The notes beneath the pieces are model-generated. The model saw only the letters and a program-made list of their open reading frames with translations. It did no database searches and had not been told where the DNA came from. From Nitrosospira multiformis (lineage in GTDB: Bacteria; Pseudomonadota; Gammaproteobacteria; Burkholderiales; Nitrosomonadaceae), in assembly GCA_017306155.1 (NCBI GenBank), contig JAFKJB010000008.1:1-64000 (forward strand): a stretch of DNA of 64,000 bases, written 5' to 3'. Each line of letters begins with the position of its first letter. The first letter of the stretch is position 1. Made by a program: the position numbers and the translations under genes. Positions 9,630-27,935 of the stretch are shown here, piece by piece.

Positions 9630-11615
9630 TTATGAACGGGAATATAAGTGTCGGCTTACTCTTTCGGCTGCCGTGTTTTCCGCATCCCCGCTGATTACGT
9701 CGCAGGCTTTTTCGCTGATCATGTAGACGGATGAGGCGATGAAGAAACCGGGTATTTTGGGGAAAATGGACGCATCCACAATACGCAGATTCCGGGTGCC
9801 ATAAACGCGAAACCGGCTGTCGACGACAGCCATGGGATCAGTGGCAGTGCCCATTTTACAACTGCACGAGGCATGGTGCCCCCACGCTTGATTTTTTATG
9901 AAACGCCGTATATCTTCACGGCTCTTGACTTCCGGGCCAGGCAGAATCTCCTCCTCGATCACGTCGGAGGAAAGCCTGACGATATTGCGCACTGCTTCCA
10001 CTCCGGCGACGAGCGATTCCATGTCTTCCCCGGCGTTCGTGCCTTCCGAAAAATAATGAAAGTTTATATCCGGTACATCACGGGGATCGGCGGACCGGAG
10101 CGTGACCCGGCCGGCTGTATTAGCGGTATGGCCCTTCAGGATGGCCCAGGTAAAGGCATTTTCCGTTCTGGCGATATTATCGGCATAACCGGGATAATAT
10201 CCCCGGAAATCCCCGATCAGGCCGAAAATGAATAAATCGGGATTGGGGCGTTCGGGAAACGAGCGCTTCATGAGCGCGATCGTCGCACCATTGGTAGTAT
10301 AGGGCCCGATGCCCTGAAGCCACTGGCTGAACTGGGAATCAGGGGCTTCGCCGGGGGCGGGACAGCGAAGTTTCATTCCCTTGATCAGGGGGATGTTTTC
10401 CCTGAGCCGGGTCACCACTCCCAGTTCATAACGATCTTGAAGGTTTTCTCCGACCCCTGGCAAGTCTACTTTTACCGTAATGCCATGGTCCACCAGTTCT
10501 TCCCGAGGGCCGATGCCGGAGAGTTTGAGCAATTGGGGTGTATTGAATGCACCTGCGGAAACAATCACCTCCCGTTCTGCAAGCACGGTTTCCACGATCC
10601 CCGGGGTTGCTGTCCCATGCCGCGGATCCGCACGATACTGATGGGCACCGGAAATGTACTCCACCCCATAGGCCTTGTTCTGTTCATCGAGCAGGATGCG
10701 CTTTGCCAGCGCGTGAGTCCTGACTTCGAGAAAATTCGGGCATTGCTCGCGAACGCGCAATATGTACTCCCGGGCTCCAGCCCGACGCCCCTGCCGGGTG
10801 GTGATCGGTATCTTGCACAAGCCTTCCGGCCTTCTGCGGATAAAACGCCAATCGTTGGGATCACCATGGGTTTTTATCTTGAGCAACGTTCGTTTGATCG
10901 GGTTGATAATGCCGCTCAACGATTCCTCGAGTGCGGCTTTTGAAAGCCTCCTCAGGACTTTGTCTCTCAGCAGCATTTCCCGCTCTGCCAGATTTGTCGG
11001 AAGCCAGCCTTCGAATCCATGCCGGCTGTCCGGTTCTTCAGCCCGGGTGGCATACTCGCAGCGCTCCATGCGCTTGAAATATTTCTGCATGTTTTCGCTG
11101 CGCCAGGATTCATCGCCAGTCTTCTCGGCGATATCGTCCCAATCGCTATTGTGGGGATAGATCAACAACATCGCATTGTGCGCGGTACATCCCCCCAGGG
11201 TGCCGGAGCGCGGGTATAACACGCCGTTTCGTTCCGGAACGAACTTGTCATCCCGTTTCTGCTGCTCGTCATCGGCGTAGTGACGCACAAAGAAGTCCCA
11301 GCGCAATGCCTCGTGCTCCGAGGTACGTGCGTGAAAGGCGGGAACGTAATATTCGCAGGGATCGTCTTCTCCCCCTGCCTCCAGCAGCAGCACGCGGAAA
11401 CCTTTCAGTGCGAGGTTACAGGCAAGCGGGCCGCCACCTGCCCCGGAACCGATGATGATGTAATCGAATTTGTTCCCCCCAACTGGCGGACAATTCAGGG
11501 GAGCAAAGGGTCGCGAGGATCCCTTCCAGAGAAGGGTAGAGCAACTGGCAAGAAAGGTGCTTGCGCCGGATACCAGCAGGGTACTGAGCTTGACAAAACT
11601 GCGTCGGGAGATCAA
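9630..11615 (-). CDS. GMC-family FAD oxidoreductase with Tat signal and lipobox
   Basis: Glucose-methanol-choline flavoproteins oxidise alcohols, sugars or sterols with FAD. Near the N-terminus ISRRSFVKLSTLLVSG is a twin-arginine signal, followed by FLASC, a lipobox that would make Cys25 the lipidated first residue. The FAD-binding loop IIGSGAGGGP (about 55-63), the second GMC signature GTLGGCTAHNAML, and the C-terminal WGHHASCSCKMG with the active-site His (about 580) are present. So a folded flavoprotein is probably exported and held at a membrane on the periplasmic side. The start is uncertain: I chose the TTG at 11615 that places the Tat motif at the N-terminus; the frame remains open upstream to 11735, but that lies in a terminator hairpin. 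Substrate unknown; a long-chain alcohol or sterol-like compound would fit the family. Last gene after tyrosinase and a dihaem lipoprotein. Confidence 0.85.
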   Translation of the reverse strand: MISRRSFVKLSTLLVSGASTFLASCSTLLWKGSSRPFAPLNCPPVGGNKFDYIIIGSGAGGGPLACNLALKGFRVLLLEAGGEDDPCEYYVPAFHARTSEHEALRWDFFVRHYADDEQQKRDDKFVPERNGVLYPRSGTLGGCTAHNAMLLIYPHNSDWDDIAEKTGDESWRSENMQKYFKRMERCEYATRAEEPDSRHGFEGWLPTNLAEREMLLRDKVLRRLSKAALEESLSGIINPIKRTLLKIKTHGDPNDWRFIRRRPEGLCKIPITTRQGRRAGAREYILRVREQCPNFLEVRTHALAKRILLDEQNKAYGVEYISGAHQYRADPRHGTATPGIVETVLAEREVIVSAGAFNTPQLLKLSGIGPREELVDHGITVKVDLPGVGENLQDRYELGVVTRLRENIPLIKGMKLRCPAPGEAPDSQFSQWLQGIGPYTTNGATIALMKRSFPERPNPDLFIFGLIGDFRGYYPGYADNIARTENAFTWAILKGHTANTAGRVTLRSADPRDVPDINFHYFSEGTNAGEDMESLVAGVEAVRNIVRLSSDVIEEEILPGPEVKSREDIRRFIKNQAWGHHASCSCKMGTATDPMAVVDSRFRVYGTRNLRIVDASIFPKIPGFFIASSVYMISEKACDVISGDAENTAAERVSRHLYSRS

Positions 11616-11731
11616 GGCGGAACCAATAGTATTTTTCTGCGGAGAGTCGCAAAAATCATTATAAAGGAAAAATTTCCACCGGTTTGGCTGCAACTCCCCT
11701 TCGATTTGCCCTGCCTTGCAATAAAGAATTC

Positions 11732-11784
11732 GCACTGCTCCCCCGAGGGGAGCAGTGCTTCTGGCAGTGATCCTGGCAGTGATC
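11732..11784 (-). terminator. Terminator-like hairpin and 12-bp tandem repeat after the dihaem gene
   Basis: GCACTGCTCCCC and GGGGAGCAGTGC (11732-11758) form a perfect 12-bp stem with a 3-base loop, placed after the stop of the leftward dihaem gene; TTCTTTATT follows on the minus strand. Immediately before it CTGGCAGTGATC occurs twice in tandem (11761-11784). The hairpin separates the dihaem gene from the GMC gene, so the latter may need read-through or its own promoter. Confidence 0.65.
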
Positions 11785-11795
11785 CGGGTAGCGCG

Positions 11796-14441
11796 TCACA
11801 TCGTTTTAAGGAATTCGATCAATGCGCGTTTGTCGCTATCTCCGAGTCCCGGCCGCCCTTCGTCTCCCGGCAGGTAATCGGTTCCAAAATAGTGACCCCG
11901 GTTGATCACGAAGTCCGGACATTTGCTCACGCCGATCAGGGGATCGACCAGGTCGGAATAGACCTTGCGTAATTCCGCATCCGTGATCCGGTCAGGCGTT
12001 ACCTTGGCGGCGATCAAATCCCCCAGATGACCTTTGAGTGTCTTCAACAGCGTCTTGACTTCACCGCCTCTCTTTTCGAGGTCCAGATTGGACAGAAGGC
12101 TGACGGGAGTGCCCTCCGGGATGGGTCCCAGATTCAATACGCCATCATGGATCGGCAACCTGACATACCAGGGCAGGTAACCCTCCGGTATCAGCAGCCA
12201 GCTTCTTGCCCAGGTTCGGTCGATGATGCCCGGCACTTCCTTGCCCGAGCGAGTGACATAAGTGCGGCTTTCGCAGCTTGTTCGTTCCTGAGTCCCATAA
12301 TTCTTTTCCGCATAGTAACCACCCCCGTACAGATCCTCCTGGTCGCAGTAGCGTTTTTCCGGCCAGAGCAATTGCTCTATCCCACTATAAAAGGATTTCA
12401 TCCTGTCCTCAACAGTGCCTGAGGGATAGAATTTGCCCAGGGTGTTATTCAACAGGAAGGGTGCCGAGGACCAGAGGCTCGCAAGCGAAGGGGGCCGGAT
12501 ATACCCGCGGCCACCATCAGGCATGGGATAGGAGCGCGGCTCCCGTGTTACGGGATGGTGAATGAGCGCGCTTCCCACGGAGGGCAGTTCTTTGTACGAG
12601 GTGGAGGAAAAATTATCCCAGGTATCGCCCTTGAGCGCGTTGGTTGCAAGGGAAGCGCAGATATTCGTTTCAAGGAGGGTGACAGGAATACGCAACTCGG
12701 TAGAAAGATAATTGTCAGCAAGAAAATCCTCCTTCAGAACGATTTTTTTCATCTCCTGCCTGAATTCGTCGGTCTTTGTCCAGTTCCAGTACTGGCTCCA
12801 GCAACTCAGGTAATCAGGCCCGACGCAACCGTTATTGGGGAAGAATTTCACCGCTTTCTCGGGCAGCTTGCTCGAGTGGCAGCCGGCGCAGTTCTCCGCA
12901 AATACTTCCTTGCCGCGTTTCAGGGTGGCTGCATCGGCGCTCAGATGACGCTTGCCTCCCGGCGCTTCCGCCAGATAATCCGGCCGGCTGGCTGCGAGGA
13001 AAAACAGCGATGTATCCAGAGTCTGGTTTTCCGTTGCCCGCCAATAGCTGGAATTCTTGTTGGCAGTGGCGATCGGGAACGGCGTGAACGGCCTGCCGCC
13101 GATCAGTGGATTGATATGCTGAAGCCACTCCTCGCTGAAAAGCCCGATATTTACGAAAACGCGGTTAAAGGCGCCGAGCGCGCCCACGGAATCCGCTCCA
13201 TCCTTGAGTACCCGTGGGGTGAACACCGTGCCCGATTTTTCGAAGAACCTTCTCAGCGGACTTTCGGAAGATATCTCCCGATAATCGTTAAACTGCTTAT
13301 TGTTGAGCTCATCGCCCGTCAGTTGCTCCTTGCCGGAGCGCAACGCATTCTTCATCCGCGCGCCCAGGTTATATACCCCATTCATGCTGCGCGGATTGTT
13401 TATGTAGTCCGTTGAAATGAGCGAGGTATCCAGGGCGCCAGGGCGATTGGTACTGAGGAACTGATAGGCGAAGCTGTTCTTGTCGGCTTCGTAGGCGAAT
13501 ACCCGGTCGAACCAGAAATATTGCGCGCCAGGGTTGGAATTAAGATTGGCCCACTGCGGGTTTTCCGGATCCTTGGGCGGATTGGAAGGGTTCGGGCCTA
13601 CATGGCAGAACCCGCACGACATGCCAACCCGGTAAGGCTTCACCAGGTTGGCATCGTTGTAGTAGGACGGATCGGTATAGTATCTCTCAGGGTCCCAGCG
13701 CTTTTTTGCGGCTTCATCGAAATCGGGATTGGGGAACAATCGCAACCCTACAATCCCGCTCGCATATCCGTAGTAAGACCCGATCGGCACTGTCTTGCCG
13801 CGCGCGCCGATCTTTACGCCAGGGTATTTCTCTTCATTTTCGAACGGATCGCGCGCGCAATTCGGATCACGCACGTCGAGATACAGGCCGAAGCGGTCCA
13901 CGCGTCCTAGCGGCTTGCCCTGGGCATCCACGTTCTTCCTGAAGCACGGTTCATTGACAAGACCGAACCAGTACCACCGGTTATCCCGGCTATATCCCGG
14001 TTTTTCCATGAGATGCGGATGGTTTGAAAGGACCTTCAGGAGATCGAAGCTGCCCTGGCTGTTGATATTGATGTGGTCCCAGAACTTGTCATCGCCGCCT
14101 GTCCAGACTATCCAGTTGTTGCGGCCCCTGACGATGGCTTTTACAGCTTCTTGCGGAGCGCGGGAAATACCGGGAACAAACGGTTCCAGCGTGGCGACAA
14201 CCTTCTGGGGATCCTTACTGATCCCATAGTCCATGTCCTTGAAGTAATCTTCGTCCGCGCCGGGGAAGCTTTCTGCTGATCGATTCACGCATTGTGCCTC
14301 GTCCTTTACTGCTCCGGCCTTCGCAAACGGACCTTCAACACACTCGACTGCAATCCAGGGCGGGCGCTTGTAGGCGCAGCCGATAAGCAATGTAGTCAAT
14401 CCCATTGCAATGAGAGTGATCGCAACACTTTTGGAATTCAT
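11796..14441 (-). CDS. Large lipoprotein with two c-type haem motifs (possible dihaem oxygenase/peroxidase-like protein)
   Basis: The 881-residue protein has a lipoprotein signal (LTTLLIGC, lipidated Cys22) and two CxxCH haem-attachment motifs, CGFCH (276-280) and CAGCH (518-522), about 240 residues apart. The second lies in a normal cytochrome c-like context (LKRGKEVFAENCAGCH). Large proteins with two widely spaced c-haems include the RoxA-type rubber oxygenases; the layout is reminiscent but I cannot prove family membership. The start at 14441 is an ATG with GGAGG 8 bases upstream. It is 88 bases after tyrosinase and precedes the GMC flavoprotein, so it could accept electrons from that enzyme or itself oxidise a substrate in the periplasm. 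Confidence 0.8.
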   Translation of the reverse strand: MNSKSVAITLIAMGLTTLLIGCAYKRPPWIAVECVEGPFAKAGAVKDEAQCVNRSAESFPGADEDYFKDMDYGISKDPQKVVATLEPFVPGISRAPQEAVKAIVRGRNNWIVWTGGDDKFWDHININSQGSFDLLKVLSNHPHLMEKPGYSRDNRWYWFGLVNEPCFRKNVDAQGKPLGRVDRFGLYLDVRDPNCARDPFENEEKYPGVKIGARGKTVPIGSYYGYASGIVGLRLFPNPDFDEAAKKRWDPERYYTDPSYYNDANLVKPYRVGMSCGFCHVGPNPSNPPKDPENPQWANLNSNPGAQYFWFDRVFAYEADKNSFAYQFLSTNRPGALDTSLISTDYINNPRSMNGVYNLGARMKNALRSGKEQLTGDELNNKQFNDYREISSESPLRRFFEKSGTVFTPRVLKDGADSVGALGAFNRVFVNIGLFSEEWLQHINPLIGGRPFTPFPIATANKNSSYWRATENQTLDTSLFFLAASRPDYLAEAPGGKRHLSADAATLKRGKEVFAENCAGCHSSKLPEKAVKFFPNNGCVGPDYLSCWSQYWNWTKTDEFRQEMKKIVLKEDFLADNYLSTELRIPVTLLETNICASLATNALKGDTWDNFSSTSYKELPSVGSALIHHPVTREPRSYPMPDGGRGYIRPPSLASLWSSAPFLLNNTLGKFYPSGTVEDRMKSFYSGIEQLLWPEKRYCDQEDLYGGGYYAEKNYGTQERTSCESRTYVTRSGKEVPGIIDRTWARSWLLIPEGYLPWYVRLPIHDGVLNLGPIPEGTPVSLLSNLDLEKRGGEVKTLLKTLKGHLGDLIAAKVTPDRITDAELRKVYSDLVDPLIGVSKCPDFVINRGHYFGTDYLPGDEGRPGLGDSDKRALIEFLKTM

Positions 14442-14529: not shown

Positions 14530-15471
14530 TTACAACGATGCTGAATCGTAGACGTAGCCCAGATCTTCCGTATCCACCAGGTCATCGTACGATTCCCCCC
14601 ACGGATCCATGATGCGGTCAGACCCGTTCAGGTTGGGTTCCGCCGATGAATTGGCCTGTTGCCAGATATGCCACAAGCGATCCACTTCGGCGTGATGAAG
14701 CCAGAAAACCGGGTCCGTGGGGGATGACATCGTATTGTTCATGATGCCGCCCACCCAGGCATGACCGTGATTATGAGCGGGAAGGCTCGTTCCGTCCGGC
14801 CTCCGGCCCCAGCCCTCGAGCCCATAGGTGAATTTCGTGTAGTCATTCTCATTGGCAAGACCGGTATTCTGGATGGAGAACTGGTTAACGATGATATCCA
14901 CATCCGTCACGCTGGCTTTTTGCGGCGGCGATGCATTTTTGCGCGACGGCGGTTGCGTTCCCGTATCCGGATCGTTTGCAGGCAGAAAACCGTTCAGCCA
15001 GGCGGGAAAGGGGTCTTCCCAGCGCCAATAGGGGACCGTGAGCTTTTCATTGGAACCAGGGCGCAGAACAGCGTCAACACGCTGCAATTCCCGCTCGAAC
15101 TCGATGAGATAACGGCGGTGCCAGCCCAGAAAACGGTAAAGGCCAGTCTCGCCCATCATGCCATGCATGTCATGCGACATGTCCATGTGAAACCGGACCA
15201 GTTCCAGGTATTTGCCTTCCTCCACCAGGCGAACAACCGCATTGCGGAATGCCTCCCGTTTTTCCGGGGAAAGGTCCGCCTGATTCTGACGGGTGACTGG
15301 TGCGCCCGGCGGTTTGGGCGCGAAGGCGGCTGCTCCGCCAAGCAGGGGCTTTACGAGTTTCTTGTGAGCTTCCTTGAGCAACTCCAGCTTATCCAGGGGA
15401 AAGCCTTCAGCGAGAACTTCATCGAAGGTTTTGGGATGAAGGTGCTCGCCGGTCTCATGCGAATGATTCAT
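14530..15471 (-). CDS. Tyrosinase-like binuclear copper enzyme
   Basis: Tyrosinases hydroxylate phenols and oxidise catechols to quinones at a type-3 copper pair. The CuA region shows FHMDMSHDMHG and FLGWHRRYLIEFE (His near 95-103 and His118). The CuB region shows PAHNHGHAWVGG (His233 and His237) and DPVFWLHHAEVDRLW (His259/260). At 313 residues it is about the size of bacterial core enzymes, and I see no signal peptide and no separate C-terminal lid domain. The ATG at 15471 follows AGGAG at 7 bases. It is the first gene of a leftward unit with the dihaem lipoprotein and the GMC flavoprotein. Copper enzymes suit an ammonia oxidiser, but the substrate cannot be read from sequence. Confidence 0.9.
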   Translation of the reverse strand: MNHSHETGEHLHPKTFDEVLAEGFPLDKLELLKEAHKKLVKPLLGGAAAFAPKPPGAPVTRQNQADLSPEKREAFRNAVVRLVEEGKYLELVRFHMDMSHDMHGMMGETGLYRFLGWHRRYLIEFERELQRVDAVLRPGSNEKLTVPYWRWEDPFPAWLNGFLPANDPDTGTQPPSRKNASPPQKASVTDVDIIVNQFSIQNTGLANENDYTKFTYGLEGWGRRPDGTSLPAHNHGHAWVGGIMNNTMSSPTDPVFWLHHAEVDRLWHIWQQANSSAEPNLNGSDRIMDPWGESYDDLVDTEDLGYVYDSASL

Positions 15472-16015: not shown

Positions 16016-16447
16016 ATGGCTTACGATATTCATCAGGTGATCAATATGTCGCAAGAGGAACTCGATCAGCTGTTTTCCTCGGGGGAAGTCGGTGAGATAC
16101 CGGATGGGGAAGCAAGGGGCACCGCTATTATCGCGCCTGGCACGCCTTACAATTATGCTATCGCGCAAGCCATCAATTTTTTTGCCTGGCAGGGGAAGGT
16201 TTTTGATGCCAAGACAAGTACCCTGAAGAACGAAATTTCACCTTTTGGTTTTCGTGCGATCATCGCCAGGGTGTACAAGGATGATAGCTGGTTCGACCAC
16301 AAGCCGTGCATCGTTCTCGATTATTCGGAAACATCCACAGTGGCCCAACGGGTGCGCGACGAAATCCGCAAGGTGGCGGACAAGCAATATCTGGGGAAGG
16401 TTTACTGGGGCAACAAGCATCTTATAGAGTTCTTCCTGCAGTTCTGA
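16016..16447 (+). CDS. Small conserved protein of unknown function in the oxidative island
   Basis: The 143-residue protein has no signal peptide or membrane segment. It has the segments IPDGEARGTAIIAPGT (about 28-43), FFAWQGKVF, ISPFGFRAIIARVYKD and VLDYSETSTVAQRVRDEIR, then YLGKVYWGNKHLIEFFLQF at the end. From memory, similar short proteins occur beside haem peroxidase and lipid-oxidising genes in other bacteria, but I cannot check this and no function is established. The alternating hydrophobic pattern suggests a small beta-barrel or lipocalin-like fold, which would suit binding of a lipid; this is speculation. The ATG at 16016 has a strong GGGAGGT ribosome-binding site. First gene of the rightward unit. 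Confidence 0.8.
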   Translation: MAYDIHQVINMSQEELDQLFSSGEVGEIPDGEARGTAIIAPGTPYNYAIAQAINFFAWQGKVFDAKTSTLKNEISPFGFRAIIARVYKDDSWFDHKPCIVLDYSETSTVAQRVRDEIRKVADKQYLGKVYWGNKHLIEFFLQF

Positions 16448-16678: not shown

Positions 16679-17983
16679 ATGACACCTCAATCCGGCTTCA
16701 TGATTGTTGCTGCTGTACGTGACGGGCAGTTGAAAGACCTGCGCGACTTGCTGGCTTCGATGAATAACCTGCCCGGCCATGCTGATCCTGATAATGAATT
16801 GATTCCATTCGGGAAATTTGAGCGCGTGCATTTTGCGCGTTTCGTGATCATAGAAGCAAGAACCGCGCAGGAAATCAGAGAATTCGGTGTAACGCCAAGA
16901 CCGTGGCGACCCGCACTCGCCTTTCTTGGCGATATCGACGGGGATATGCAGACTTTTTTGCTGGAACTGATTGAGCGCGCAGAGCCCGGTCTAAAAAAAA
17001 TCTTTTCTCATTGCGAAGGTTTTTCTGAGGAAAATCAGGACCTGCTGGGCTGGATGAATGCAAACAATATAAATGCCGGCGCCAATTATGTTAACTGGAT
17101 TGGTCGAACGGTCAGGCAAATCCATGAAGAAGCAGCGCTACATCGAAGCTTGTCCATCTATCTGCCAAAAATTGCTGACGATGTGGGCCGGGAGAATGTC
17201 CGTGCTTTACGGCAAAAGCTGTTGTCCTATGTCGAAATGGAAAAATACAAAGGCAGGCTTACGTTAACTCCGCCCGAACCCACGCCCCCCGAATGGAAAA
17301 TGCGCAATCTTCTGCATATGATCGGGATTCCATTGATCCTGCTTCTTCTATCCCCGCTATTACTGGTTATCGCACTTATTTTTGCACTACGTTTGAGAAT
17401 GCTCGAACGCTCTGACCCTGAGCTCTTCATTCGGCCCAGCCGTGAACATCTGGCAGAGCTTACAGTGCAGGAAGATCAGGATGTCAGTAATCAGTACAGT
17501 GTGTTCGGCGACGTGAAACCGGGTCCGGTCCGCCTGCTGACTTTCAAATTCATACTCCTGCTGACCGACTATGTTGCCAGGCACATATATAACCATGGAT
17601 TTCTCGCTCGAATAAAAACGATTCATTTTGCCCGCTGGGTGTTCATGGACAATAACCATAGAATTTTTTTCGCCAGTAATTATGATGGCAGCCATGAAAG
17701 CTACATGGATGATTTTATCAATAAGGTTGGCTGGGGTCTCAATCTTACCTTCACGAATGGTGTCGGCTACCCTACCACCCGGTGGATCGTCAAGGAAGGC
17801 GCAAACCGGGAGCATGCCTTCAAATATACGCAAAGGCGACATCAGATACCCACGGAGGTTTGGTACAAGGCTTACCCGGGATTGACAGCCGTTGATCTGG
17901 CGCGAAACAGCCGTATCCGTCAAGGCGTGGAAATTCGGCAATCCAATGATGCGGAAATCCGTGAATGGCTCAGCCTGATCTGA
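16679..17983 (+). CDS. Membrane-anchored protein with duplicated VHFAR domain, unknown function
   Basis: The 434-residue protein has one or two close membrane helices at about 212-236 (MIGIPLILLLLSPLLLVIAL). The N-terminal half contains FERVHFARFVIIEA (about 47-60) and the C-terminal half contains IKTIHFARWVFMD (about 302-314), each followed by similarly spaced strands (ALAFLGDIDGD versus RIFFASNYDGS) and an amphipathic segment. This indicates an internal duplication of an alpha+beta domain, possibly ferredoxin-like as in DyP peroxidases and chlorite dismutases. I see no catalytic signature. It is followed after 11 bases by the DyP peroxidase gene, so it may be a membrane platform or partner for it. 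Confidence 0.8.
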   Translation: MTPQSGFMIVAAVRDGQLKDLRDLLASMNNLPGHADPDNELIPFGKFERVHFARFVIIEARTAQEIREFGVTPRPWRPALAFLGDIDGDMQTFLLELIERAEPGLKKIFSHCEGFSEENQDLLGWMNANNINAGANYVNWIGRTVRQIHEEAALHRSLSIYLPKIADDVGRENVRALRQKLLSYVEMEKYKGRLTLTPPEPTPPEWKMRNLLHMIGIPLILLLLSPLLLVIALIFALRLRMLERSDPELFIRPSREHLAELTVQEDQDVSNQYSVFGDVKPGPVRLLTFKFILLLTDYVARHIYNHGFLARIKTIHFARWVFMDNNHRIFFASNYDGSHESYMDDFINKVGWGLNLTFTNGVGYPTTRWIVKEGANREHAFKYTQRRHQIPTEVWYKAYPGLTAVDLARNSRIRQGVEIRQSNDAEIREWLSLI

Positions 17984-17994
17984 GGAGCATGGAA

Positions 17995-20771: not shown

Positions 20772-22436
20772 TTAAATGGTTACACCGTTCGGAATGAATC
20801 TTGGATTCATGCGATCATAGGCAAAGGAACGTCTGCTGTTTCTCTGGTCGATTTCTCCTTCTATTTCTTCCAGCCTGTCCCCAAACCGCTCTATCACCTC
20901 GTGTGCCTCAGAATCGAATTGCTGCAAGTCGTACTGACCGATCGAGCTGACACGAAAATTCGTCAGGAAATAGGTCCAGGTTTGCGAATAAGCAGCTCGA
21001 AACGCCGGTTGAAACTTCAATAATCCAGCTGCATCAATTTCAGCGTTTTTTCCCGTGGGAGGGGGCGCATAAGCTGAATGCGGCATATTGGGAACGAACC
21101 CAGGATATTTGTATTGGTTGAAGTGAATGCAGGAATGAAAAGCAGTACACAGGAAAATGATATGACCGAAAGTCTCGCTCAGCTCTTGCCTGGATCCGAA
21201 TCTGGCAGGAAACCCGGGAATTCTGCCGCGATCCTGCGCGCTGATATCATGGGCCCATGCCTGAATTTCATAGTCGTCAGTAACATTCGTTTCAGATTTG
21301 TAATATAAATCGACATATTCTTTGCAAAAGCCTTGAATCGCATCCCACAGCAAAATGCCGTCATCGCGATAGGGATAAAAAAGATCAGGATTATCGACTT
21401 CCCGCTTCGCAATATCATCAGGGAAGGCGGATTCTTTAAAATTAAAGCTCGTCATGCCATTGGCCATGCACTGCGTCATGGCGTCATAGTCTCCGGCAAA
21501 CAACTCACCGTACCGGCCCGGCCGCCCTTTCCGGTCTTTCAGGAAAGTGTGCTGGTGATTGACATTGAGCGTATGCTGAAGATGCGGATTTAACAGAACA
21601 TAAAGCGGGTGAGATTTATAAAGCTGCCTTCGTGAAGCCATGATGATGGCTTCCATGACGTAATGAATACGGGTCGCATGGGTATACAGGATGTGATGAT
21701 TGCTATCCGCGACCTGGGCGAACGTTTTTGCTGTCAGCCAGAGATTGCCGTCTTTTGACGTATGGATTGGATTATCGGGCCGGGCATCCTGGTACAGCTG
21801 GATGGCAATCGGCCGCAGCATGCCATCCGGTTGCAGGAACAGCACGACGATCGGAGTCGTGACATATTGTTTCTGACCGCCGTCGATATATCCGGGATTT
21901 GACTGTAATACATCCAGGACTGCATAGTCCAGGACGTACAGGCGCTTTTGCTCGGTGGCAGCCGCATAGTCGATCTCATCAACCTGCTCTTCAAAAATTT
22001 GCCGTATCTCAGGTTCCGGTAGCTTTTCCGGTAGAGGATTCTGATGGGTTACAGCGCGCAACATCACAGGATTTACGCCAATGACGCGTTGCAGGCCAAA
22101 TACCAGGTCTTGCTGGAAGCTGTCGACGAGACCGGGGTTTGGAGGACTCGCCGGAAAAAAAACATAATCCCGATAACTTTCCATCGGCTTGCCGAGCAGG
22201 TAGCGCAAAAAAGTAATCGACAGGCTGGGTAAACTTGGAATCAACCGTAAAAGGTTCATCCCCCCGCGGAGCCAATATCCAATGCCGGGTATCTCCCGCC
22301 ATGGCAGTTTACGCACGACTGCAATAGTATTGACATACTCATAGGCATATTGATACTCAGCCTGCCTCTGAAGAAGATAATTCTTCCGATCTTCTTTACC
22401 TGCATTTTCTTCATTCTGCGGTAGCTTGTTCGACAC
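20772..22436 (-). CDS. Bacterial lipoxygenase, predicted R-type
   Basis: Lipoxygenases add O2 to polyunsaturated fatty acids, giving hydroperoxides. The protein (554 residues) lacks an N-terminal PLAT domain. Iron ligands are all visible: His248 and His253 (HILYTH), His434 and His438 (AFHSCIHFNQ), and the C-terminal carboxylate of Ile554 (NGVTI). WLTAKTFAQVADSNH and LLNPHLQHTLNVN are family landmarks. At the Coffa position (YRDDG, Gly360) it has Gly, the residue associated with R stereochemistry; S enzymes have Ala. The GTG at 22436 has AAAGGAG seven bases upstream and is a better start than the longer frame to 22505. It lies 72 bases after the cyclooxygenase-like gene and converges on the catalase-related gene. 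Confidence 0.93.
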   Translation of the reverse strand: MSNKLPQNEENAGKEDRKNYLLQRQAEYQYAYEYVNTIAVVRKLPWREIPGIGYWLRGGMNLLRLIPSLPSLSITFLRYLLGKPMESYRDYVFFPASPPNPGLVDSFQQDLVFGLQRVIGVNPVMLRAVTHQNPLPEKLPEPEIRQIFEEQVDEIDYAAATEQKRLYVLDYAVLDVLQSNPGYIDGGQKQYVTTPIVVLFLQPDGMLRPIAIQLYQDARPDNPIHTSKDGNLWLTAKTFAQVADSNHHILYTHATRIHYVMEAIIMASRRQLYKSHPLYVLLNPHLQHTLNVNHQHTFLKDRKGRPGRYGELFAGDYDAMTQCMANGMTSFNFKESAFPDDIAKREVDNPDLFYPYRDDGILLWDAIQGFCKEYVDLYYKSETNVTDDYEIQAWAHDISAQDRGRIPGFPARFGSRQELSETFGHIIFLCTAFHSCIHFNQYKYPGFVPNMPHSAYAPPPTGKNAEIDAAGLLKFQPAFRAAYSQTWTYFLTNFRVSSIGQYDLQQFDSEAHEVIERFGDRLEEIEGEIDQRNSRRSFAYDRMNPRFIPNGVTI

Positions 22437-22508
22437 GAGGCACTCCTTTGTAAAAATAAGGTTCTCGCCCGGTTTCCATAGCCTTTCCATATGCCCGTCC
22501 GTCACTGA

Positions 22509-24104
22509 TCACTGGGCAGATGTATTGAAGCTTGCAACAACCGTATCGCTATCCTTTACATTACGTTTAACGATATCCGCAAGCGAGTTCGTTTCTTCAA
22601 TAACGGATTGTCCAACCCTTGAAAAGGTCTTTTCATTGTGTACATAGATCGATACAAGCGGGTTTGTCAGAGCATGGGTAAATGCATCGTACCCCACCAT
22701 CCGTACCATAAGGCGCCCAAGACTGAAGCCTTCATCATGATCTTCGGCAAATATGCCAACCTGCCACTCCAGATCATCGATCCGGTCTTTATAGAGGTCC
22801 TTCAGTTCCCGTTGTAGTTCGCTGTCCACCGTCAATTCCTCGAAACTCTGCAAACGGGGCATGCTGAACGCCTCGCGATAGTCGTTGAAAGGGCGCAGCC
22901 TGGCCTGACGTCCCATTGCAATGGAGCGCTCCATGACGCTTCGATTATCGTCACCAACGGGCAACGGATAGAAAAAGTAACCATGTGTATTGTGAAGACC
23001 AATACGGCCCGCCCTTTGCATCGATGCAGCCGTTATCAGCTTGCCGATGCCGTGTTGAATTGCCAGCGGGGTATTATTGCGAAACTCATCCAGTTGATAT
23101 GATTTGCTGCCGACCCTGTAACTTTCCGGGACCATGGAATGCCACCGGTACAGGAGATTGAATTCCAGGGAGATCCAGTTGGTGCGGTACCAGCGCTGCT
23201 TTTCCGCCAGGTCGGGGGATGGGTCGAGGGTAAAACCAAACTGTGTAAAACGCGAGACGTAATCCGCCAGAACCACTTTGATCAGCAGCACAACCATGAT
23301 GTTTCTTGCCGTCTGAAACAGACGTTCGTCATCCCATGCCGGGTAAGCTTCTTTTAGCAGGTCGCAGATCCGGTTGTGTTCACGCAACATCACCGTATTC
23401 ATGATGGTATAGCCAATCGATGAGTTGCCATGCTCCAGTCCGGCGGCAAACATGCGTTTCAACCGTTCTTCGGGGACATTGCTAAAAACAAAATCCAGAA
23501 CCTCGCGGGAGTGCAGCTTCTCGAGTTCTTTATCTGCGAACACCCAGTTGCCCGTAGTCGTCTCCTCAACGTTAAAAAGGTAGGGAGGAAAAATTTCTCC
23601 ATCGATAATCTGGTACTTCAGCTTCCCATCTTTTTTCAGTCGTAAATAATGCGTAATTTCTTCCCGCAAACCATAGAGCTGGCAAAGATCGATTTCATGG
23701 TTCGATGTATTTTTCCGGCGATCGCGAAAATCTGTCCTGAGGAAACTATCGGTAAACCACTGGGCAAAGAAAGCAAACAGTATGCTTGTATCGACCGAGG
23801 GTATTTCTTTGTTCTCTTTTCTTCGCCATAAATCAACGACTCTTTCCATATCCGGCAGACTCTGATCTCCTTCCGCCTCCGGCAGATGCCGTCCGGTAAA
23901 TGTCTTGTCAGTCAACGATTGCCATGTCGTATAGGATGAAGCCAGCGAGAACGGCCGGGGCCGAGGGTTTGTGGAATAGGCTTGCCAATTGATAAAAGCG
24001 TCACTGATAAACCGCCGTAACCATGTTATCCGCGAAACGATTCTGACGAGCCAGGGAAATCTGTTCGCAATCCGAAACAGGATCGGGAAAAAAAACTCAT
24101 ACAT
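22509..24104 (-). CDS. Cyclooxygenase-like haem dioxygenase/peroxidase with Asp at the distal His site
   Basis: The 531-residue protein aligns with animal prostaglandin H synthases from SYTTWQSLTDKTFTGR through FAFFAQWFT, KLKYQIIDGEIFPP, LREHNRICDLL, EFNLLYRWHS and a C-terminal ETNSLADIVKRNVKD. Tyr319 and proximal His322 (YRWH) match the catalytic Tyr385 and His388 of COX-1; Ser507 matches the aspirin-acetylated Ser530. Gln115 is kept, but the distal peroxidase His207 is replaced by Asp119 (AQWFTD). The EGF-like domain is missing; instead the N-terminus is two short hydrophobic/basic helices, which may bind the membrane. I chose the ATG at 24104 with AAGGGG upstream over the longer frame from a TTG at 24272. 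Same family as plant alpha-dioxygenases and fungal diol synthases, so the product may be a hydroperoxide rather than a prostaglandin. Confidence 0.88.
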   Translation of the reverse strand: MYEFFFPILFRIANRFPWLVRIVSRITWLRRFISDAFINWQAYSTNPRPRPFSLASSYTTWQSLTDKTFTGRHLPEAEGDQSLPDMERVVDLWRRKENKEIPSVDTSILFAFFAQWFTDSFLRTDFRDRRKNTSNHEIDLCQLYGLREEITHYLRLKKDGKLKYQIIDGEIFPPYLFNVEETTTGNWVFADKELEKLHSREVLDFVFSNVPEERLKRMFAAGLEHGNSSIGYTIMNTVMLREHNRICDLLKEAYPAWDDERLFQTARNIMVVLLIKVVLADYVSRFTQFGFTLDPSPDLAEKQRWYRTNWISLEFNLLYRWHSMVPESYRVGSKSYQLDEFRNNTPLAIQHGIGKLITAASMQRAGRIGLHNTHGYFFYPLPVGDDNRSVMERSIAMGRQARLRPFNDYREAFSMPRLQSFEELTVDSELQRELKDLYKDRIDDLEWQVGIFAEDHDEGFSLGRLMVRMVGYDAFTHALTNPLVSIYVHNEKTFSRVGQSVIEETNSLADIVKRNVKDSDTVVASFNTSAQ

Positions 24105-24485
24105 AATCTCTACCCCTTCTTCGCGTAAGCGACAAGTCGTTGACGAATCCAATCTTCCTGTTTTCCAGAACGGCGGTGTATGCACCGGATAGAGATTCCA
24201 CGAATAGAGATCCGTAAGCCAGCGATGCTGTCCACGGGAATGGATGAGTTGCTCATTTTTCGACCCCGTCAACCTGCATGCTTAGATGGCTGCATTTCGC
24301 CGCCGGGCTGGAACAGGAAATCCCGCGACCCGCACAAAAACATGCTTTGGCATGAATATCGTCAATTCACCATAGTTCATAAAAAAGGGGACGTCAAAAC
24401 CGGGCGGTGTGTTGTAAAAACTGAAAAATAGCCTAATATCAGAATGCGAATGCAGCGTTATCCTGGTTCACGACAAGAGGTCGCA
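24105..24485. other. Divergent region between the cyclooxygenase-like and protease genes
   Basis: These 381 bases should carry the promoter of the leftward COX-LOX unit and of the rightward protease-hydrolase unit. A good rightward promoter is at 24412-24439. A reading frame continues upstream of the chosen COX start to 24272, but it starts at a TTG without a ribosome-binding site and resembles nothing. Confidence 0.5.
24412..24439 (+). promoter_or_regulatory. Sigma-70-like promoter for the protease-hydrolase unit
   Basis: TTGTAA (24412-24417) and TAATAT (24434-24439) are spaced by 16 bases in an AT-rich stretch. Transcription would begin near 24446, which supports the ATG at 24486 over the ATG at 24444 as start of the protease. 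Confidence 0.5.
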
Positions 24486-26579
24486 ATGTCCCCTTCCCAC
24501 CAGCCCCCGGAAACCCAGTCCACTGTCAAAGTTTTTGACCCGCTGGAGCTTGACCGTTCCGTGATTGCTATTCCTCTTCTGCGGCAGATGGAGGAGGAAT
24601 TAAGAGGAATTGAAGCTTTTCGGGTTGCGCATCCGTTTTCCGAAAATGGAGAATTCAATACGCTGATCGAATACAACAGAGAATTCGATGGAAAGCCGGA
24701 GGAGATGCGGGAACTGGTCGTCAAGATGGCTGAAGAGGCGGCAGCGAAGGCATTGGAGGCATCGAAAAAACGGGTCGAAGAGAGCAAGGAGGTGGCCCCG
24801 GCGGGAACAGAGGGCACGCCGTTGAATGGTGGCTCGACAAGGAGCCGGGCCGATATTTACGGAAATCTTTTTTTGATGGAGCAGCGGCGCCACAAGGATC
24901 TCGAAGAAGCGATCGGCGCCCAGAAAATCGGGCCGGTCTCGGAGGATGGCGCCTATAGCTTTGCCAGCTTGCACGCAACCATAATACGGCGAATATCAGC
25001 TGCAAACGAACGGCTGTCACAGGGTGAGGAAACTTCGAAGAAACCTATCCTTCATATCCACCCTACACGTTACGAAGTCATCATCGATATCAATCTCGAA
25101 TATCCGGGTGGGCGGGAAGAGGCCCGGCGCTGGATTTACCAGAATATCGAAGAGGCCAAGAACAAAGCGAAAGTGTACGACGCGGGCCAGGATATTCATC
25201 TCAGGAAGGAACAGCGCGAAAGCGGTTACATGTTCGCCTGTCTGGAAGCCCGTACCATCAAGGCGCTCATCGAGCTCGATGTCGCGCAGGCAAAGGTGAG
25301 GGCTCACGAGGCTCGGGAAAGGGTGCGGGATACGAGCCATGAAGCAAAGGCTCGTGCAGCAAAAATCAACCCGGCCAAATTTCGCGCCATCTTCCGCATA
25401 TGGCCGGATTTCGAGATTTCTGCCTCTATCACCCACTCCATTGCCACGATAAAAGCCGATGCGGCGCAGAATTCTTTTTCCGCGCGTGGCGCCGGAATCA
25501 CCTGGGCGGTGATGGATTCAGGAATAAAGCAGGATCACGGGCATTTTCGCAAACACAACAACGTTGATAAAGATTCCACATGGCATAAAGACTTTACGGC
25601 TGACGGCAGCGGTCCGTTCGACGATGAGAACGGACATGGGACGCACGTGGCAGGCATCATCGCCGGCGAGTGGCGTCCGGCCGGTGCGCCAGGAGGAACG
25701 GAAGGGGCTGCGTCAGCGGATATTTCCCCTCCGGCGGGCGATTCTGCCACGCCATCCCGAATTCCCGTAGCGGTTTCCCGTTATCTGAAAACGGGTTCCG
25801 AAGATGTCGAATACCAGCAGATAAAACTCGTGGACGGCATCAGCGGAATGGCCCCGCGTTGCAAGCTGATAAGCCTGCGGGTACTGGACGAAAACGGAAA
25901 AGGAAGCGTGAGCAATCTCATCGCGGCCATTGCCCATGTGCAGGAGATCAACGGTTACGGCCGAAAGCTTCTGATCCACGGAGTCAACATGAGCCTCGGA
26001 TATACCTTCGAGCCCGAATGGTTCGCCTGCGGCCAGAGTCCGCTCTGCGTCGAGGTTGACCGGTTGGTAAAAACCGGTGTCGTGGTCGTCGTCGCCGCGG
26101 GCAATACAGGTTACGGCACATTGAAGGCCGCCACAGGTGCGCTCTCGGCAGGAATGGCGTTGACCATCAATGATCCCGGCAATGCGGATCTCGCCATTAC
26201 GGTAGGTTCGACCCATCGCGACATGCCGCACGTTTACGGAGTTTCCTACTTTTCCTCGAAAGGGCCGACGGGCGACGGCCGTCTCAAGCCGGATCTCGTT
26301 GCGCCCGGCGAAAAAATCATCTCATGCGCCACTGGCCTGTTAAAAAATGAGGGCGCGCAGGGCATCGAGTGCGACTACGTCGAAACCAGCGGCACCAGTA
26401 TGGCGGCTCCCCATGTCAGCGGCGCGATCGCAGCGTTTCTCTCGGTGCGAACCGAGTTCATCGGCAAGGCAGAACGTGTTAAGGAGATTTTCGTTGATAC
26501 GGCTACTGATCTGCGGCGCGACCGCTACTTCCAGGGCACGGGTCTCATTGATCTGATGCGCGCTATTCAGTCAGTGTGA
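24486..26579 (+). CDS. Subtilisin-like serine protease (S8 family) with long N-terminal domain
   Basis: The 697-residue protein has about 330 residues of unassigned N-terminal sequence rich in Glu, Lys and Arg helices, then an S8 catalytic domain. The triad is visible: Asp344 in WAVMDSGI, His384 in NGHGTHVAG, Ser638 in SGTSMAAPHVSG; the oxyanion Asn540 is in AAGNTGYG. There is no signal peptide, so it appears to act in the cytoplasm. I chose the ATG at 24486, which has AAGAGG upstream. It is followed after 48 bases by an alpha/beta hydrolase gene, and the two are probably one unit. The target is unknown; the neighbouring oxidative enzymes give no direct hint. Confidence 0.92.
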   Translation: MSPSHQPPETQSTVKVFDPLELDRSVIAIPLLRQMEEELRGIEAFRVAHPFSENGEFNTLIEYNREFDGKPEEMRELVVKMAEEAAAKALEASKKRVEESKEVAPAGTEGTPLNGGSTRSRADIYGNLFLMEQRRHKDLEEAIGAQKIGPVSEDGAYSFASLHATIIRRISAANERLSQGEETSKKPILHIHPTRYEVIIDINLEYPGGREEARRWIYQNIEEAKNKAKVYDAGQDIHLRKEQRESGYMFACLEARTIKALIELDVAQAKVRAHEARERVRDTSHEAKARAAKINPAKFRAIFRIWPDFEISASITHSIATIKADAAQNSFSARGAGITWAVMDSGIKQDHGHFRKHNNVDKDSTWHKDFTADGSGPFDDENGHGTHVAGIIAGEWRPAGAPGGTEGAASADISPPAGDSATPSRIPVAVSRYLKTGSEDVEYQQIKLVDGISGMAPRCKLISLRVLDENGKGSVSNLIAAIAHVQEINGYGRKLLIHGVNMSLGYTFEPEWFACGQSPLCVEVDRLVKTGVVVVVAAGNTGYGTLKAATGALSAGMALTINDPGNADLAITVGSTHRDMPHVYGVSYFSSKGPTGDGRLKPDLVAPGEKIISCATGLLKNEGAQGIECDYVETSGTSMAAPHVSGAIAAFLSVRTEFIGKAERVKEIFVDTATDLRRDRYFQGTGLIDLMRAIQSV

Positions 26580-26627
26580 TTTTGAGAGTATAAAGAAAGT
26601 ATAAAAAGAGAAAAAAGGAGCGCAGCC

Positions 26628-27935
26628 ATGGATGAAATCGCGGGAATTCCTTATGTGGAAGCAAGCTTCGACAAGAACGGTCAGGGTCCTGAAAAGGGGG
26701 TCGTTCTGCCTGCCGGTGTGACCGACCTTGTCATCATGTCGCACGGGTGGAATAACGACAAGTCCAAGGCAGAAGATCTATATAACAGCTTTTTTGCAAG
26801 CTTTGCCGCTGCCGCGCAGCCAAACGATTTGTCCGGCCGAAAGCTTGTCATCCTGGGCGTATTCTGGCCATCCAGGGAATACGATACGTCTGTTGCCGTT
26901 TCGGGTACTCCTGCCGCTGGAGGAGGCGGCGCAGCCCTCGGGGGTGGAAACGGCGACTCGATCAAGCGGCTGGAAGAAAAACTGGATGACATGAAAGAAA
27001 TTTTCACGGAGACGGAGCAGAAGAAACTTCTTGATGAGGCGAAAGCGTTGCTTCCGGATCTCGAGGAGAAAGCCTCGGTCCGGGATCAATTTGTGAACAA
27101 AATGCGTTCCCTGCTCGATCCGAGCGCTGCTGGCAAAGAGGATGCGTCCAATGTCTTCTTCAAGGATGGCGGCAACGAACTGATGAAAAACCTGAAGGCC
27201 GAGGAAGAGGATCTGGGGGAAGATGTCGCAGGAGGCGGAGCAGCGTTGCCGCTCGGTGTGAGCGCTCCCGCCCCGGCAGAGGGCGGAGCGGCGGGATTGG
27301 TAGAGATTCTTTCCGGATTCAAGGCAGCTGCCATAAATCTGCTCAACTATACTACCTACTACGAGATGAAGACGCGATCTGGAACCGTGGGCAGGAACGG
27401 GGTTGCTCCGCTGATCGATAAACTTGCCTCGCAGGTCGAACGTATCCATCTGATCGGGCACAGCTTCGGCTGTCGGGTTGTCACTTCGGCAGCGCTCAAC
27501 TCGAAAACCGACAAGATAAAAAGCATGATACTCATCCAGGCGGCCTTCTCCCAGAACGGGTTTTCAAGGATTGAACAGGGATTCTATCGCGCGGTCGTGG
27601 ATAATCATCGAGTCAAAGGCGCGGTCCTTATCACGCACACGCCCAATGATAGAGCGGTAGGTCTGGCATATCCGCTCGCATCTCGCATCAGCGGCGATAA
27701 AACCATGGCGTTTGGGGATAAGGATGACTTGTTCGGAGCCATGGGTCGCAATGGCGCGCAGAAAATGGAGCAGGGCGAAGCTGTCGAAGGCAAGTTGCTT
27801 CCCATGGGGGGTGCCTATGTTTTCAAGGCCGATACCTATTTCAACCTGGAAGCCAGCGATTTCATCAAGAACCACAACGACATAAAGGGGAAGGAGGTTG
27901 GCCACATGGTGCGCAGAGCCGTCGCAACCGCATAG
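26628..27935 (+). CDS. Alpha/beta-hydrolase-fold protein with a long helical insertion
   Basis: The 435-residue protein starts with a hydrolase core (DLVIMSHGWNNDKSKA, about 33-48, the oxyanion-side loop), and the nucleophile elbow is LIGHSFGCR with Ser279. Likely acid and base are in THTPNDRA and in NHNDIKGKEVGH near the C-terminus. Between them, about 90-230, is an insertion with a Gly-rich linker (GGGGAALGGGNG) and a charged probable coiled coil, then another Gly/Ala-rich linker. No signal peptide. The ATG follows AAGGAG. Paired with the S8 protease upstream. It could be an esterase or lipase that releases fatty acids, which would suit a lipid-oxidising island, but the substrate is inference. 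Confidence 0.82.
   Translation: MDEIAGIPYVEASFDKNGQGPEKGVVLPAGVTDLVIMSHGWNNDKSKAEDLYNSFFASFAAAAQPNDLSGRKLVILGVFWPSREYDTSVAVSGTPAAGGGGAALGGGNGDSIKRLEEKLDDMKEIFTETEQKKLLDEAKALLPDLEEKASVRDQFVNKMRSLLDPSAAGKEDASNVFFKDGGNELMKNLKAEEEDLGEDVAGGGAALPLGVSAPAPAEGGAAGLVEILSGFKAAAINLLNYTTYYEMKTRSGTVGRNGVAPLIDKLASQVERIHLIGHSFGCRVVTSAALNSKTDKIKSMILIQAAFSQNGFSRIEQGFYRAVVDNHRVKGAVLITHTPNDRAVGLAYPLASRISGDKTMAFGDKDDLFGAMGRNGAQKMEQGEAVEGKLLPMGGAYVFKADTYFNLEASDFIKNHNDIKGKEVGHMVRRAVATA

What the first reader, a model, noticed from the sequence alone, without database searches (positions are those of the whole stretch)
9630..27935. A bacterial island that combines cyclooxygenase-like, lipoxygenase and catalase-related (allene-oxide-synthase-like) genes
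Within 18 kb lie a COX homologue, a lipoxygenase, a catalase-related haem protein, a DyP peroxidase, a tyrosinase, a GMC flavoprotein, a dihaem lipoprotein, an alpha/beta hydrolase, a subtilase and two conserved unknowns. The three lipid-oxidising families are best known from animals, corals and plants. Their close packing, in two converging units, suggests a pathway: release of a fatty acid (hydrolase), oxygenation (LOX, COX), and conversion of the hydroperoxide (catalase-related protein, DyP). This pathway is inference; individual families are clear from motifs. The source of a polyunsaturated substrate in such a bacterium is an open question, so the target may be an external lipid or host/competitor membrane.
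Basis: partly seen in the sequence, partly recalled or inferred. Interest (0 to 1): 0.93.

Follow-up and report, generated by a model that had tools for sequence, protein, structure and literature searches.

The report
Lipid-oxidising enzyme island in ammonia oxidisers
Some ammonia-oxidising bacteria carry, as one block of genes, a relative of the animal enzyme cyclooxygenase beside a lipoxygenase and a set of haem enzymes, which together are predicted to make and process oxidised fatty acids; the true substrate and products are untested.

Summary
The genes are there and the cluster is real. The window belongs to an ammonia-oxidising betaproteobacterium (Nitrosospira/Nitrosovibrio genus). The island joins a COX-like/LOX tandem, a four-gene operon (small unknown u143, membrane protein u16679, DyP, catalase-related) and a GMC dehydrogenase with a dihaem lipoprotein. 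Of 125 family genomes, all 17 with LOX carry full-length u16679; 1 of 108 without LOX does. The COX-LOX tandem is kept in 14 of 14 complete loci. The COX-like enzyme is not of the prostaglandin-synthase type: distal His, Ser530 and Arg120 are replaced; it resembles the cyanobacterial 10S-dioxygenase, reviewed as oxidising oleic and linoleic acid, so that step may not need polyunsaturated lipid. 'Allene-oxide-synthase-like' is not supported. Unexpected: in 12 of 12 non-carriers with both flanks read, the same slot holds a RoxA-like dihaem protein, a P450 and an ankyrin protein. Against a dedicated pathway: outside the family, u16679-type domains with DyP have no COX or LOX nearby in 18 of 18 loci. 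No chemistry is shown. Island near certain; pathway about even.

The parts
9630..11735 (-). GMC-type flavoprotein dehydrogenase with a twin-arginine (SRRSFVK) motif near the N-terminus; the ORF start probably lies upstream of the true start
   Evidence: Pfam GMC_oxred_N/C; motif read in the translation, Tat motif recalled; next to the dihaem gene also in Nitrosomonas and in G293
11796..14441 (-). Dihaem c-type lipoprotein: two CXXCH motifs (ORF residues 324-328 and 566-570) and a lipobox LIGC; the ORF runs to 14585 but homologues start at ORF residue 49
   Evidence: alignment; Pfam Cytochrom_C; NCBIfam NF040606 di-haem peroxidase E 5e-8, below cut-off
14530..15471 (-). Tyrosinase-domain protein; found in 4 of the 6 carriers whose stretch covers the place (not in G019 and G020)
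   Evidence: Pfam Tyrosinase E 2e-36
16016..16447 (+). u143, small conserved unknown protein, first gene of the four-gene operon
   Evidence: no Pfam, NCBIfam or PADLOC match; kept directly upstream of u16679 in Nitrosospira, Nitrosomonas (about 45%), G293 (62%) and G130 (42%)
16679..17983 (+). u16679, unknown membrane protein: two alpha/beta domains around a long helical, presumably membrane, stretch; possible dimeric alpha/beta-barrel fold
   Evidence: 6004 homologues at E<=1e-3 among 7999 scored, no Pfam; AlphaFold mean pLDDT 67.6; best Foldseek hit WhiE-ORFI, probability 0.98 but E 0.02, none at E<=0.001
17965..19509 (+). DyP-type peroxidase; ORF overlaps u16679 by 19 bp
   Evidence: PDB 8re3 E 4e-38; TIGR01413 below cut-off; gap
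19506..20711 (+). Catalase-related haem protein; ORF overlaps DyP by 4 bp
   Evidence: homologues named catalase family protein; key residues; gap
20772..22505 (-). Lipoxygenase with full iron site (His271, His276, His457, His461, C-terminal Ile577)
   Evidence: Pfam E 4e-59; PDB 5med E 4e-72 and alignment; residues across 15 sequences
22509..24104 (-). COX-like haem dioxygenase of the bacterial 10S-dioxygenase type (Tyr375, proximal His378, distal Asp175, Asp529-Ala530, ORF numbering); the ORF runs to 24272 but homologues start at ORF residue 57; ORF ends 3 bp before the LOX ORF
24444..26579 (+). Subtilase-family protease, seen only in Nitrosospira-type stretches
   Evidence: Pfam Peptidase_S8
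26628..27935 (+). Alpha/beta-hydrolase-like protein, seen only in Nitrosospira-type stretches
   Evidence: Pfam Abhydrolase_1 E 2e-5, just below cut-off
8963..9571 (-). Left border of the slot: DUF3617 protein, seen in 12 of the 15 non-carrier stretches
28327..30180 (+). Right border of the slot: RNB-domain ribonuclease, found in 22 of 23 genus genomes

Best explanation
The stretch is a co-inherited island in which a tandem COX-like haem dioxygenase and lipoxygenase are predicted to turn unsaturated fatty acids into hydroperoxides that the neighbouring u143-u16679-DyP-catalase-related operon would likely convert or reduce. The COX-like enzyme most likely works like the cyanobacterial 10S-dioxygenase: a tyrosyl radical (Tyr375) abstracts hydrogen and O2 is added near C10 of oleic-type and linoleic-type chains (inferred from shared residues). 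The lipoxygenase would oxygenate pentadiene-containing chains. The catalase-related protein would act on the hydroperoxides and DyP would use them or hydrogen peroxide, probably at the inner membrane where u16679 is thought to sit (inferred). The GMC protein (Tat motif) and the dihaem lipoprotein would oxidise alcohol or aldehyde products in the periplasm (inferred). Shown: gene content, order, co-inheritance, catalytic residues, and that the slot holds a different gene set in non-carriers. Not shown: any activity, substrate or product.
For: Co-inheritance: COX of this type, LOX and cat in the same 8 of 23 genus genomes; LOX in 17 of 125 family genomes, full-length u16679 in those 17 plus one (Fisher p 4.5e-20 ignoring relatedness). 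COX-LOX head to tail in 14 of 14 complete loci with COX of 74% or more; COX and LOX pairwise identities correlate (Spearman 0.91, 15 sequences, pairs not independent). Residues: distal Asp and Asp-Ala at F529/S530 in 25 of 25 sequences aligned, including a Nostoc punctiforme ORF whose Tyr342, Ile483, Asp486, Ala487 and FTDSF match those printed for the 10S-dioxygenase. The four His columns of the LOX iron site are complete in 14 of 15. A catalase-related gene follows the COX-like gene in 12 of the 16 cyanobacterial loci. DyP-catalase-related fusion in G436. Patatin and aldehyde dehydrogenase behind LOX in N. marina.
Against: u16679-type domains with DyP have no COX or LOX nearby in 18 of 18 loci outside the family, and G533 inside the family has the operon without LOX, so the operon has a life of its own. 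In 3 of 17 LOX genomes LOX and u16679 lie on different contigs. Of 80 COX-like loci, 66 show no LOX in the fetched flank (several flanks are short). The catalase-related protein lacks the distal Asn. No pentadiene source is shown; the genome has three desaturase-family proteins, one above an NCBIfam cut-off. MAG locus L086 has Gln at one LOX iron-ligand column.
Confidence: 0.5

Rival explanations
1. The island is mainly a peroxide and oxidative-stress defence set: DyP, catalase-related protein and dihaem protein remove peroxides made during ammonia oxidation, and COX-LOX is a separate pair that rides along.
For: u16679-type domains with DyP have no COX or LOX nearby in 18 of 18 loci outside the family; G533 has the operon without LOX; short u16679-like + DyP pairs occur in the 5 non-carrier genomes looked at.
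Against: All 17 LOX genomes of the family have full-length u16679 and 107 of 108 LOX-less ones do not, though 14 of those show part of its C-terminal domain at 28-34%; plain stress defence would not predict this. The distal Asn of catalases is absent (motif recalled).
Confidence: 0.25
2. The island makes an outward-acting oxidised-lipid product or attacks lipids of competitors or hosts.
For: GMC (Tat motif) and dihaem protein (lipobox) look exported; a patatin-like protein lies by COX-LOX in N. marina.
Against: COX, LOX, DyP and the catalase-related protein show no export signal by eye (no signal-peptide program was run), so the oxygenation steps look internal.
Confidence: 0.13
3. The genes are a hot-spot assembly of unrelated oxidative genes brought by gene transfer, without a shared pathway.
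For: The slot DUF3617-RNB holds different gene sets in carriers and non-carriers; modules are separable; tyrosinase, subtilase and hydrolase are lineage-specific in the stretches fetched.
Against: COX-LOX, GMC-dihaem and the operon stay together, in changed order, in most of the Nitrosomonas genomes examined, which a neutral assembly would not keep.
Confidence: 0.12

Closest known systems
Nostoc punctiforme linoleate/oleate 10S-dioxygenase with its catalase-related hydroperoxide lyase (Brash 2014, seen only through the review PMC13049297)
   Same: COX-like enzyme with distal Asp (FTDSF), catalytic Tyr, proximal His, Asp-Ala at F529/S530; a catalase-related gene close by
   Different: Window enzyme has His281 where the Nostoc ORF has Arg248 and Val526 for Ile483; 39% identity; a lipoxygenase is in tandem instead, and the catalase-related gene lies with DyP and u16679 on the other strand, 26% identical, without the distal Asn
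Animal COX-1/COX-2 (PGHS)
   Same: Sequence family, Tyr385 and His388 equivalents
   Different: Distal His207, Ser530 and Arg120 replaced by Asp, Ala and Gln
Lipoxygenase of PDB 5med (named Arachidonate 15-lipoxygenase there; cyanobacterial origin recalled)
   Same: Best PDB match, aligned over 24-576, same iron-site pattern
   Different: Fourth ligand His instead of Asn, and a short insertion after the NVN stretch
P. aeruginosa oleate-diol synthase dihaem proteins PA2077/PA2078 (FadCcp) and rubber oxygenase RoxA
   Same: Dihaem, two CXXCH, exported (passages of PMC4496055)
   Different: Window protein gives no RoxA match by Pfam or PDB sequence and RoxA is not among the 60 of 66 profile hits shown; it has APFLLNN where FadCcp has PYLHNGSV. 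The slot protein of non-carriers does match RoxA-like_Cyt-c (69 bits, cut-off 26.7) and has PYLHNGSV

Membership tests
Prostaglandin G/H synthase (COX) | Tyr385 and proximal His388 | tested here: met
   Y375 and H378
Prostaglandin G/H synthase (COX) | Distal haem His207 | tested here: not met
   Asp175; invariant in the 16 sequences of A1
Prostaglandin G/H synthase (COX) | Ser530 and Arg120 | tested here: not met
   Ala530 and Gln97
Bacterial 10S-dioxygenase type | FTDSF with distal Asp, Asp-Ala at F529/S530, catalytic Tyr, proximal His | tested here: met
   against the residues printed in PMC13049297
Bacterial 10S-dioxygenase type | Arg at the position of Val291 (Arg248 in the Nostoc ORF) | tested here: not met
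   His281; His in 11, Arg in 13, Asn in 1 of 25 sequences
Bacterial 10S-dioxygenase type | 10S-hydroperoxide product from oleic or linoleic acid | not testable with these tools
   needs an enzyme assay
Lipoxygenase | Three His, fourth ligand, C-terminal Ile at the iron | tested here: met
   H271, H276, H457, H461, I577
Catalase-related allene oxide synthase / hydroperoxide lyase | Proximal Tyr with Arg four residues before | tested here: met
   R372 and Y376; in 15 sequences aligned, Tyr 15 and Arg 14
Catalase-related allene oxide synthase / hydroperoxide lyase | Distal His (recalled) | tested here: met
   H103, invariant in the 23 sequences of A3; varies in more distant relatives
Catalase-related allene oxide synthase / hydroperoxide lyase | Distal Asn (recalled) | tested here: not met
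   the region reads TSGGATF in the window protein and no Asn stands there in its close relatives; fold model too poor to check
DyP peroxidase | Distal Asp and proximal His motifs (recalled) | tested here: met
   GFPDS and AHVRRSNPR read by eye in the translation; homology
RoxA / FadCcp dihaem oxygenases | Two CXXCH motifs | tested here: met
RoxA / FadCcp dihaem oxygenases | RoxA-like sequence profile and PYLHNGSV motif | tested here: not met
   no RoxA-like match for the window protein; 4 of 6 family members match weakly, best E 0.0046, below cut-off; RoxA not found or not among the hits shown; APFLLNN in the window protein
IetAS-type defence (subtilase) | IetS model as best match | tested here: not met
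   generic subtilase model far better (1.3e-47 against 2.1e-17)
IetAS-type defence (subtilase) | ATPase partner gene (recalled) | tested here: not met
   no ATPase family among the island ORFs scanned

The most novel reading that the evidence does not exclude
Ammonia oxidisers of this genus swap two different fatty-acid-oxygenation systems at one chromosomal slot: a COX-like/LOX island with a new four-gene hydroperoxide-handling operon, or a RoxA-like dihaem oxygenase with a P450; and that operon belongs to a widespread module in which an uncharacterised alpha/beta-barrel protein and a DyP peroxidase work with either a catalase-related protein or a P450 as interchangeable hydroperoxide-processing partner.
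Probability: 0.33. Interest if true: 0.88.

Novelty: new variant of a known kind. Interest (0 to 1): 0.74.

Why it matters
COX-like and LOX genes sit back to back in autotrophic nitrifiers. If the products are oxylipins, they could be signals, membrane-repair products or antagonists in the nitrifying communities that control soil nitrogen loss, and carriers and natural non-carriers of one genus make the question testable. The uncharacterised u143 and u16679 proteins, the latter with thousands of homologues, gain a testable role next to DyP.

Tried and rejected
Prostaglandin synthase: rejected, key residues differ. Allene oxide synthase label: rejected for lack of the distal Asn; the fold model of the catalase-related protein was too poor (pLDDT 47.6) to search, so no fold search was made with it. 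RoxA/FadCcp membership of the window's dihaem protein: not met. Anti-phage role: no PADLOC match in the 10 proteins scanned (GMC not among them) except the subtilase, which fits the generic model better than IetS. Plasmid origin: plasmid searches gave only relatives under 60% identity (8 LOX, 45 u16679 and 29 COX records), of which four were opened; phage records and viral contigs were not searched. GC content does not mark a recent arrival: island 0.529 against 0.547 and 0.560, though COX, LOX and u16679 have lower GC3. DNA polymerase I identities (66-72% to the Nitrosomonas genomes) do not separate transfer from descent. The non-carrier slot P450 is not close to the COX-fused P450s. Exclusivity of the slot swap is limited: besides the slot protein, more distant RoxA-like hits (32-39%, about 570-600 aa frames) occur elsewhere in 7 of 8 carriers (a short frame in G007) and in several non-carriers. 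Literature (library of open-licence papers only; search listings unless said): searches listed no paper on this cluster in ammonia oxidisers, but listings are capped (one search showed 3 of 2,866 papers, one search showed 20 of 560, one search showed 25 of 162, one search showed 25 of 103, one search showed 12 of 162). A Nitrosomonas europaea lipoxygenase is mentioned in a passage of PMC11941309. Brash 2014 itself is not held. PMC11719350 was searched for six terms, none found in the held 300,000 of 522,781 characters.
Full report
WHAT IS THERE. The ORFs fall into packed groups: COX-like then LOX on the minus strand, 3 bp apart; u16679, DyP and the catalase-related gene (called cat below) on the plus strand with overlaps of 19 and 4 bp; cat and LOX converge with 60 bp between; GMC, dihaem and tyrosinase on the minus strand. 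The window is the first 64 kb of a 168-kb contig of a 3.02-Mb draft genome.

WHOSE GENOME. The closest named COX homologues are Nitrosovibrio sp. Nv4 (86%) and Nitrosomonas europaea (82%). Several unnamed same-genus genomes have contigs of the same lengths as named records of Nitrosospira multiformis Nl7, Nl12, Nl18 and Nitrosovibrio Nv4, Nv6, so the genus is that of Nitrosospira/Nitrosovibrio (inferred from lengths).

CO-INHERITANCE. In the 23 genomes of the genus, the COX of this type (85% or more), LOX and cat (92% or more) are found in the same 8 and in no other. In three of the 8 the COX match shows one or two stops; those matches begin at query residue 12-15, inside the over-long N-terminal extension of the window ORF, and the Nl12 and Nl18 genes read open for 531 aa from residue 57. 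One further genome, G013, has only a second, about 40%-identical COX paralogue, and G004 only a 28% cat-like domain, fused to a LodA-type oxidase. At family level (125 genomes) LOX is in 17: 8 of this genus and 9 of a second genus, which holds N. europaea (same contig coordinates as). Full-length u16679 (78% or more) is in the same 17 and in G533; 14 further genomes show only a part of its C-terminal domain at 28-34%. Fisher p is 4.5e-20, ignoring relatedness. LOX and u16679 share a contig, about 3-14 kb apart, in 14 of 17; in G518, G520 and G529 they are on different contigs.

GENE ORDER. A scan of named genomes with a COX alignment kept 80 loci of 164 relatives found. In 14 the COX is at least 74% identical and complete, all from Nitrosospira, Nitrosovibrio or Nitrosomonas, and in 14 of 14 LOX follows head to tail. 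The other 66 show no LOX in the fetched flank; one of them (L131, 78%) is cut by its contig end. In the 8 Nitrosomonas genomes examined around u16679, u143-u16679-DyP-cat is contiguous in 8 of 8, and dihaem plus GMC adjoin it in 6 of 8; in the two N. marina genomes homologues of about 45% of both lie on the other side of COX. In the stretches fetched, subtilase and hydrolase were seen only in the Nitrosospira-type island; a distant tyrosinase lies by COX in N. europaea. So the conserved unit is COX-LOX + GMC-dihaem + u143-u16679-DyP-cat, in changed order in Nitrosomonas.

THE COX-LIKE ENZYME. It aligns with COX-1 and COX-2 (E 1e-68). Tyr385 and His388 are kept; His207 is Asp175, Ser530 is Ala530, Arg120 is Gln97. 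A 2026 review (PMC13049297; passages, section 20 read) prints for the Nostoc punctiforme 10S-dioxygenase Tyr342, F143-t-d-s-F, Ile483, D486 and Ala487, and says it oxidises oleic and linoleic acid to 10S-hydroperoxides; the linoleic product can be transformed by a catalase-related lyase. The ORF of N. punctiforme NIES-2108 (L146) carries Tyr342, Ile483, Asp486, Ala487 and FTDSF (distal Asp at 145) and has a catalase-related gene right behind it. The window enzyme shares the distal Asp and the Asp-Ala pair (25 of 25 sequences aligned) but has His281 where Nostoc has Arg248. It works like that type by residues; product and full membership are untested.

LOX. All iron ligands are present in the window protein; across 15 sequences one MAG (L086) has Gln at one ligand column. 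At the C-terminal column 6 sequences, including the window, have Ile and 9 have Val.

CAT, DyP, u16679, u143. Cat keeps the proximal Tyr (15 of 15) and Arg (14 of 15) and a distal His, but the window clade lacks the distal Asn. u16679 has at least 6004 homologues at E<=1e-3 and no Pfam family; the model (pLDDT 67.6) suggests alpha/beta domains around a long helical stretch, with only a weak best match to an ABM/SchA-like protein. In a sample of 398 genomes of the phylum 21 gave a hit. Outside the family I examined 18 loci with u16679-type domains (L043, L163-L179): DyP adjoins in 18 of 18; a cat-type gene is adjacent in 7, a P450 is fused or adjacent in 9 (one, L179, by a short weak match), neither in 2, both in 0; COX or LOX within the fetched 12-20 kb in 0. 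The rest of those genomes was not searched for COX or LOX, and three weak hits without DyP were not followed. A DyP-cat fusion occurs in G436 (L176); P450-u16679-DyP fusions occur in six of the loci (P450 by Pfam in both of the two scanned). G293, of another class, has dihaem-GMC-u143-u16679-DyP-cat in one row. So the operon belongs to a module of its own that the ammonia oxidisers combine with COX-LOX. This is the main evidence against reading the island as a closed lipid pathway.

THE SLOT. In carriers the island lies between DUF3617 and an RNB ribonuclease. Of the 15 non-carrier stretches, 12 show both borders, and in 12 of 12 a RoxA-like dihaem protein, a P450 and an ankyrin-repeat protein lie there instead; L060 has only the ankyrin gene between Mpl and RNB, L054 and L061 do not cover the slot. 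The RoxA-like protein (76% or more) is in 14 of 15 non-carriers and 0 of 8 carriers; in two of the 14 (G016, G018) it lies on another contig than RNB. More distant RoxA-like proteins (32-39%) are found elsewhere in 7 of 8 carriers and in several non-carriers, so carriers are not free of the superfamily. The slot protein matches the RoxA-like Pfam family above cut-off and RoxA itself in the PDB (4b2n, E 1e-6), both over a short stretch of about 33 residues, and carries PYLHNGSV, a signature printed for MauG and the P. aeruginosa fatty-acid dihaem oxygenases (passage of PMC4496055; sequence). By DNA polymerase I the three carriers examined (83-94%) are closer to the window than the four non-carriers examined (75-81%), so one swap on the carriers' common stem would suffice.

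SUBSTRATE. For LOX a diene is still needed; the genome has three desaturase-family proteins, one above the NCBIfam cut-off for the DesA family. A patatin-like phospholipase and an aldehyde dehydrogenase follow LOX in both N. marina loci and a 39% patatin relative precedes COX in N. communis, consistent with release, oxygenation and aldehyde oxidation; this is inference.

VERDICT. Island and co-inheritance: shown. 10S-dioxygenase-type COX relative: shown by residues, activity inferred. Pathway: inferred, about even odds. Slot swap between two gene sets: shown; a shared oxygenase function of the two sets is inferred.

Noticed in passing
L047-L053, L055-L059 (non-carrier slot, DUF3617-RNB): RoxA-like dihaem protein, P450 and ankyrin gene stand where carriers have the island.
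   Followed up: yes
G000:C11:94941-96425 (L029), outside the window: A second COX-like paralogue (36-42%, Arg at the V291 position) beside a lipase-like hydrolase; present in the 8 carriers and in G013 only among the 23 genus genomes.
   Followed up: partly
L163, L164, L165, L167, L168, L170, L208; L166, L210: u16679-type domain and DyP are fused to or followed by a P450; P450 and a catalase-related gene did not occur together in the 18 loci examined.
   Followed up: partly
P0032, P0035, P0039, P0043, P0052 and others; L096, L139: The same COX-like subfamily is fused to a P450 domain in other bacteria such as Marivivens and Methylocapsa, recalling fungal dioxygenase-P450 fusions.
   Followed up: partly
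L196-L200 (non-carriers, other site): Short u16679-like proteins (164-218 aa) directly before a second type of DyP.
   Followed up: no
L044:9274-12207: A catalase-related domain fused to a LodA-type lysine epsilon-oxidase.
   Followed up: no
L092:13835-19214, L153: Patatin-like protein, aldehyde dehydrogenase and a second animal-type haem peroxidase between LOX and u143 in N. marina.
   Followed up: partly
L094:13391-16252 and relatives: A 953-aa animal-haem-peroxidase protein between LOX and GMC in several Nitrosomonas.
   Followed up: no
L202 (G465), L203 (G475): Two genomes of the Nitrosomonas genus keep cat-DyP-u16679-u143, dihaem-GMC and LOX within about 20 kb in changed order; COX follows LOX at the edge of L202 and lies beyond the stretch in L203.
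   Followed up: partly
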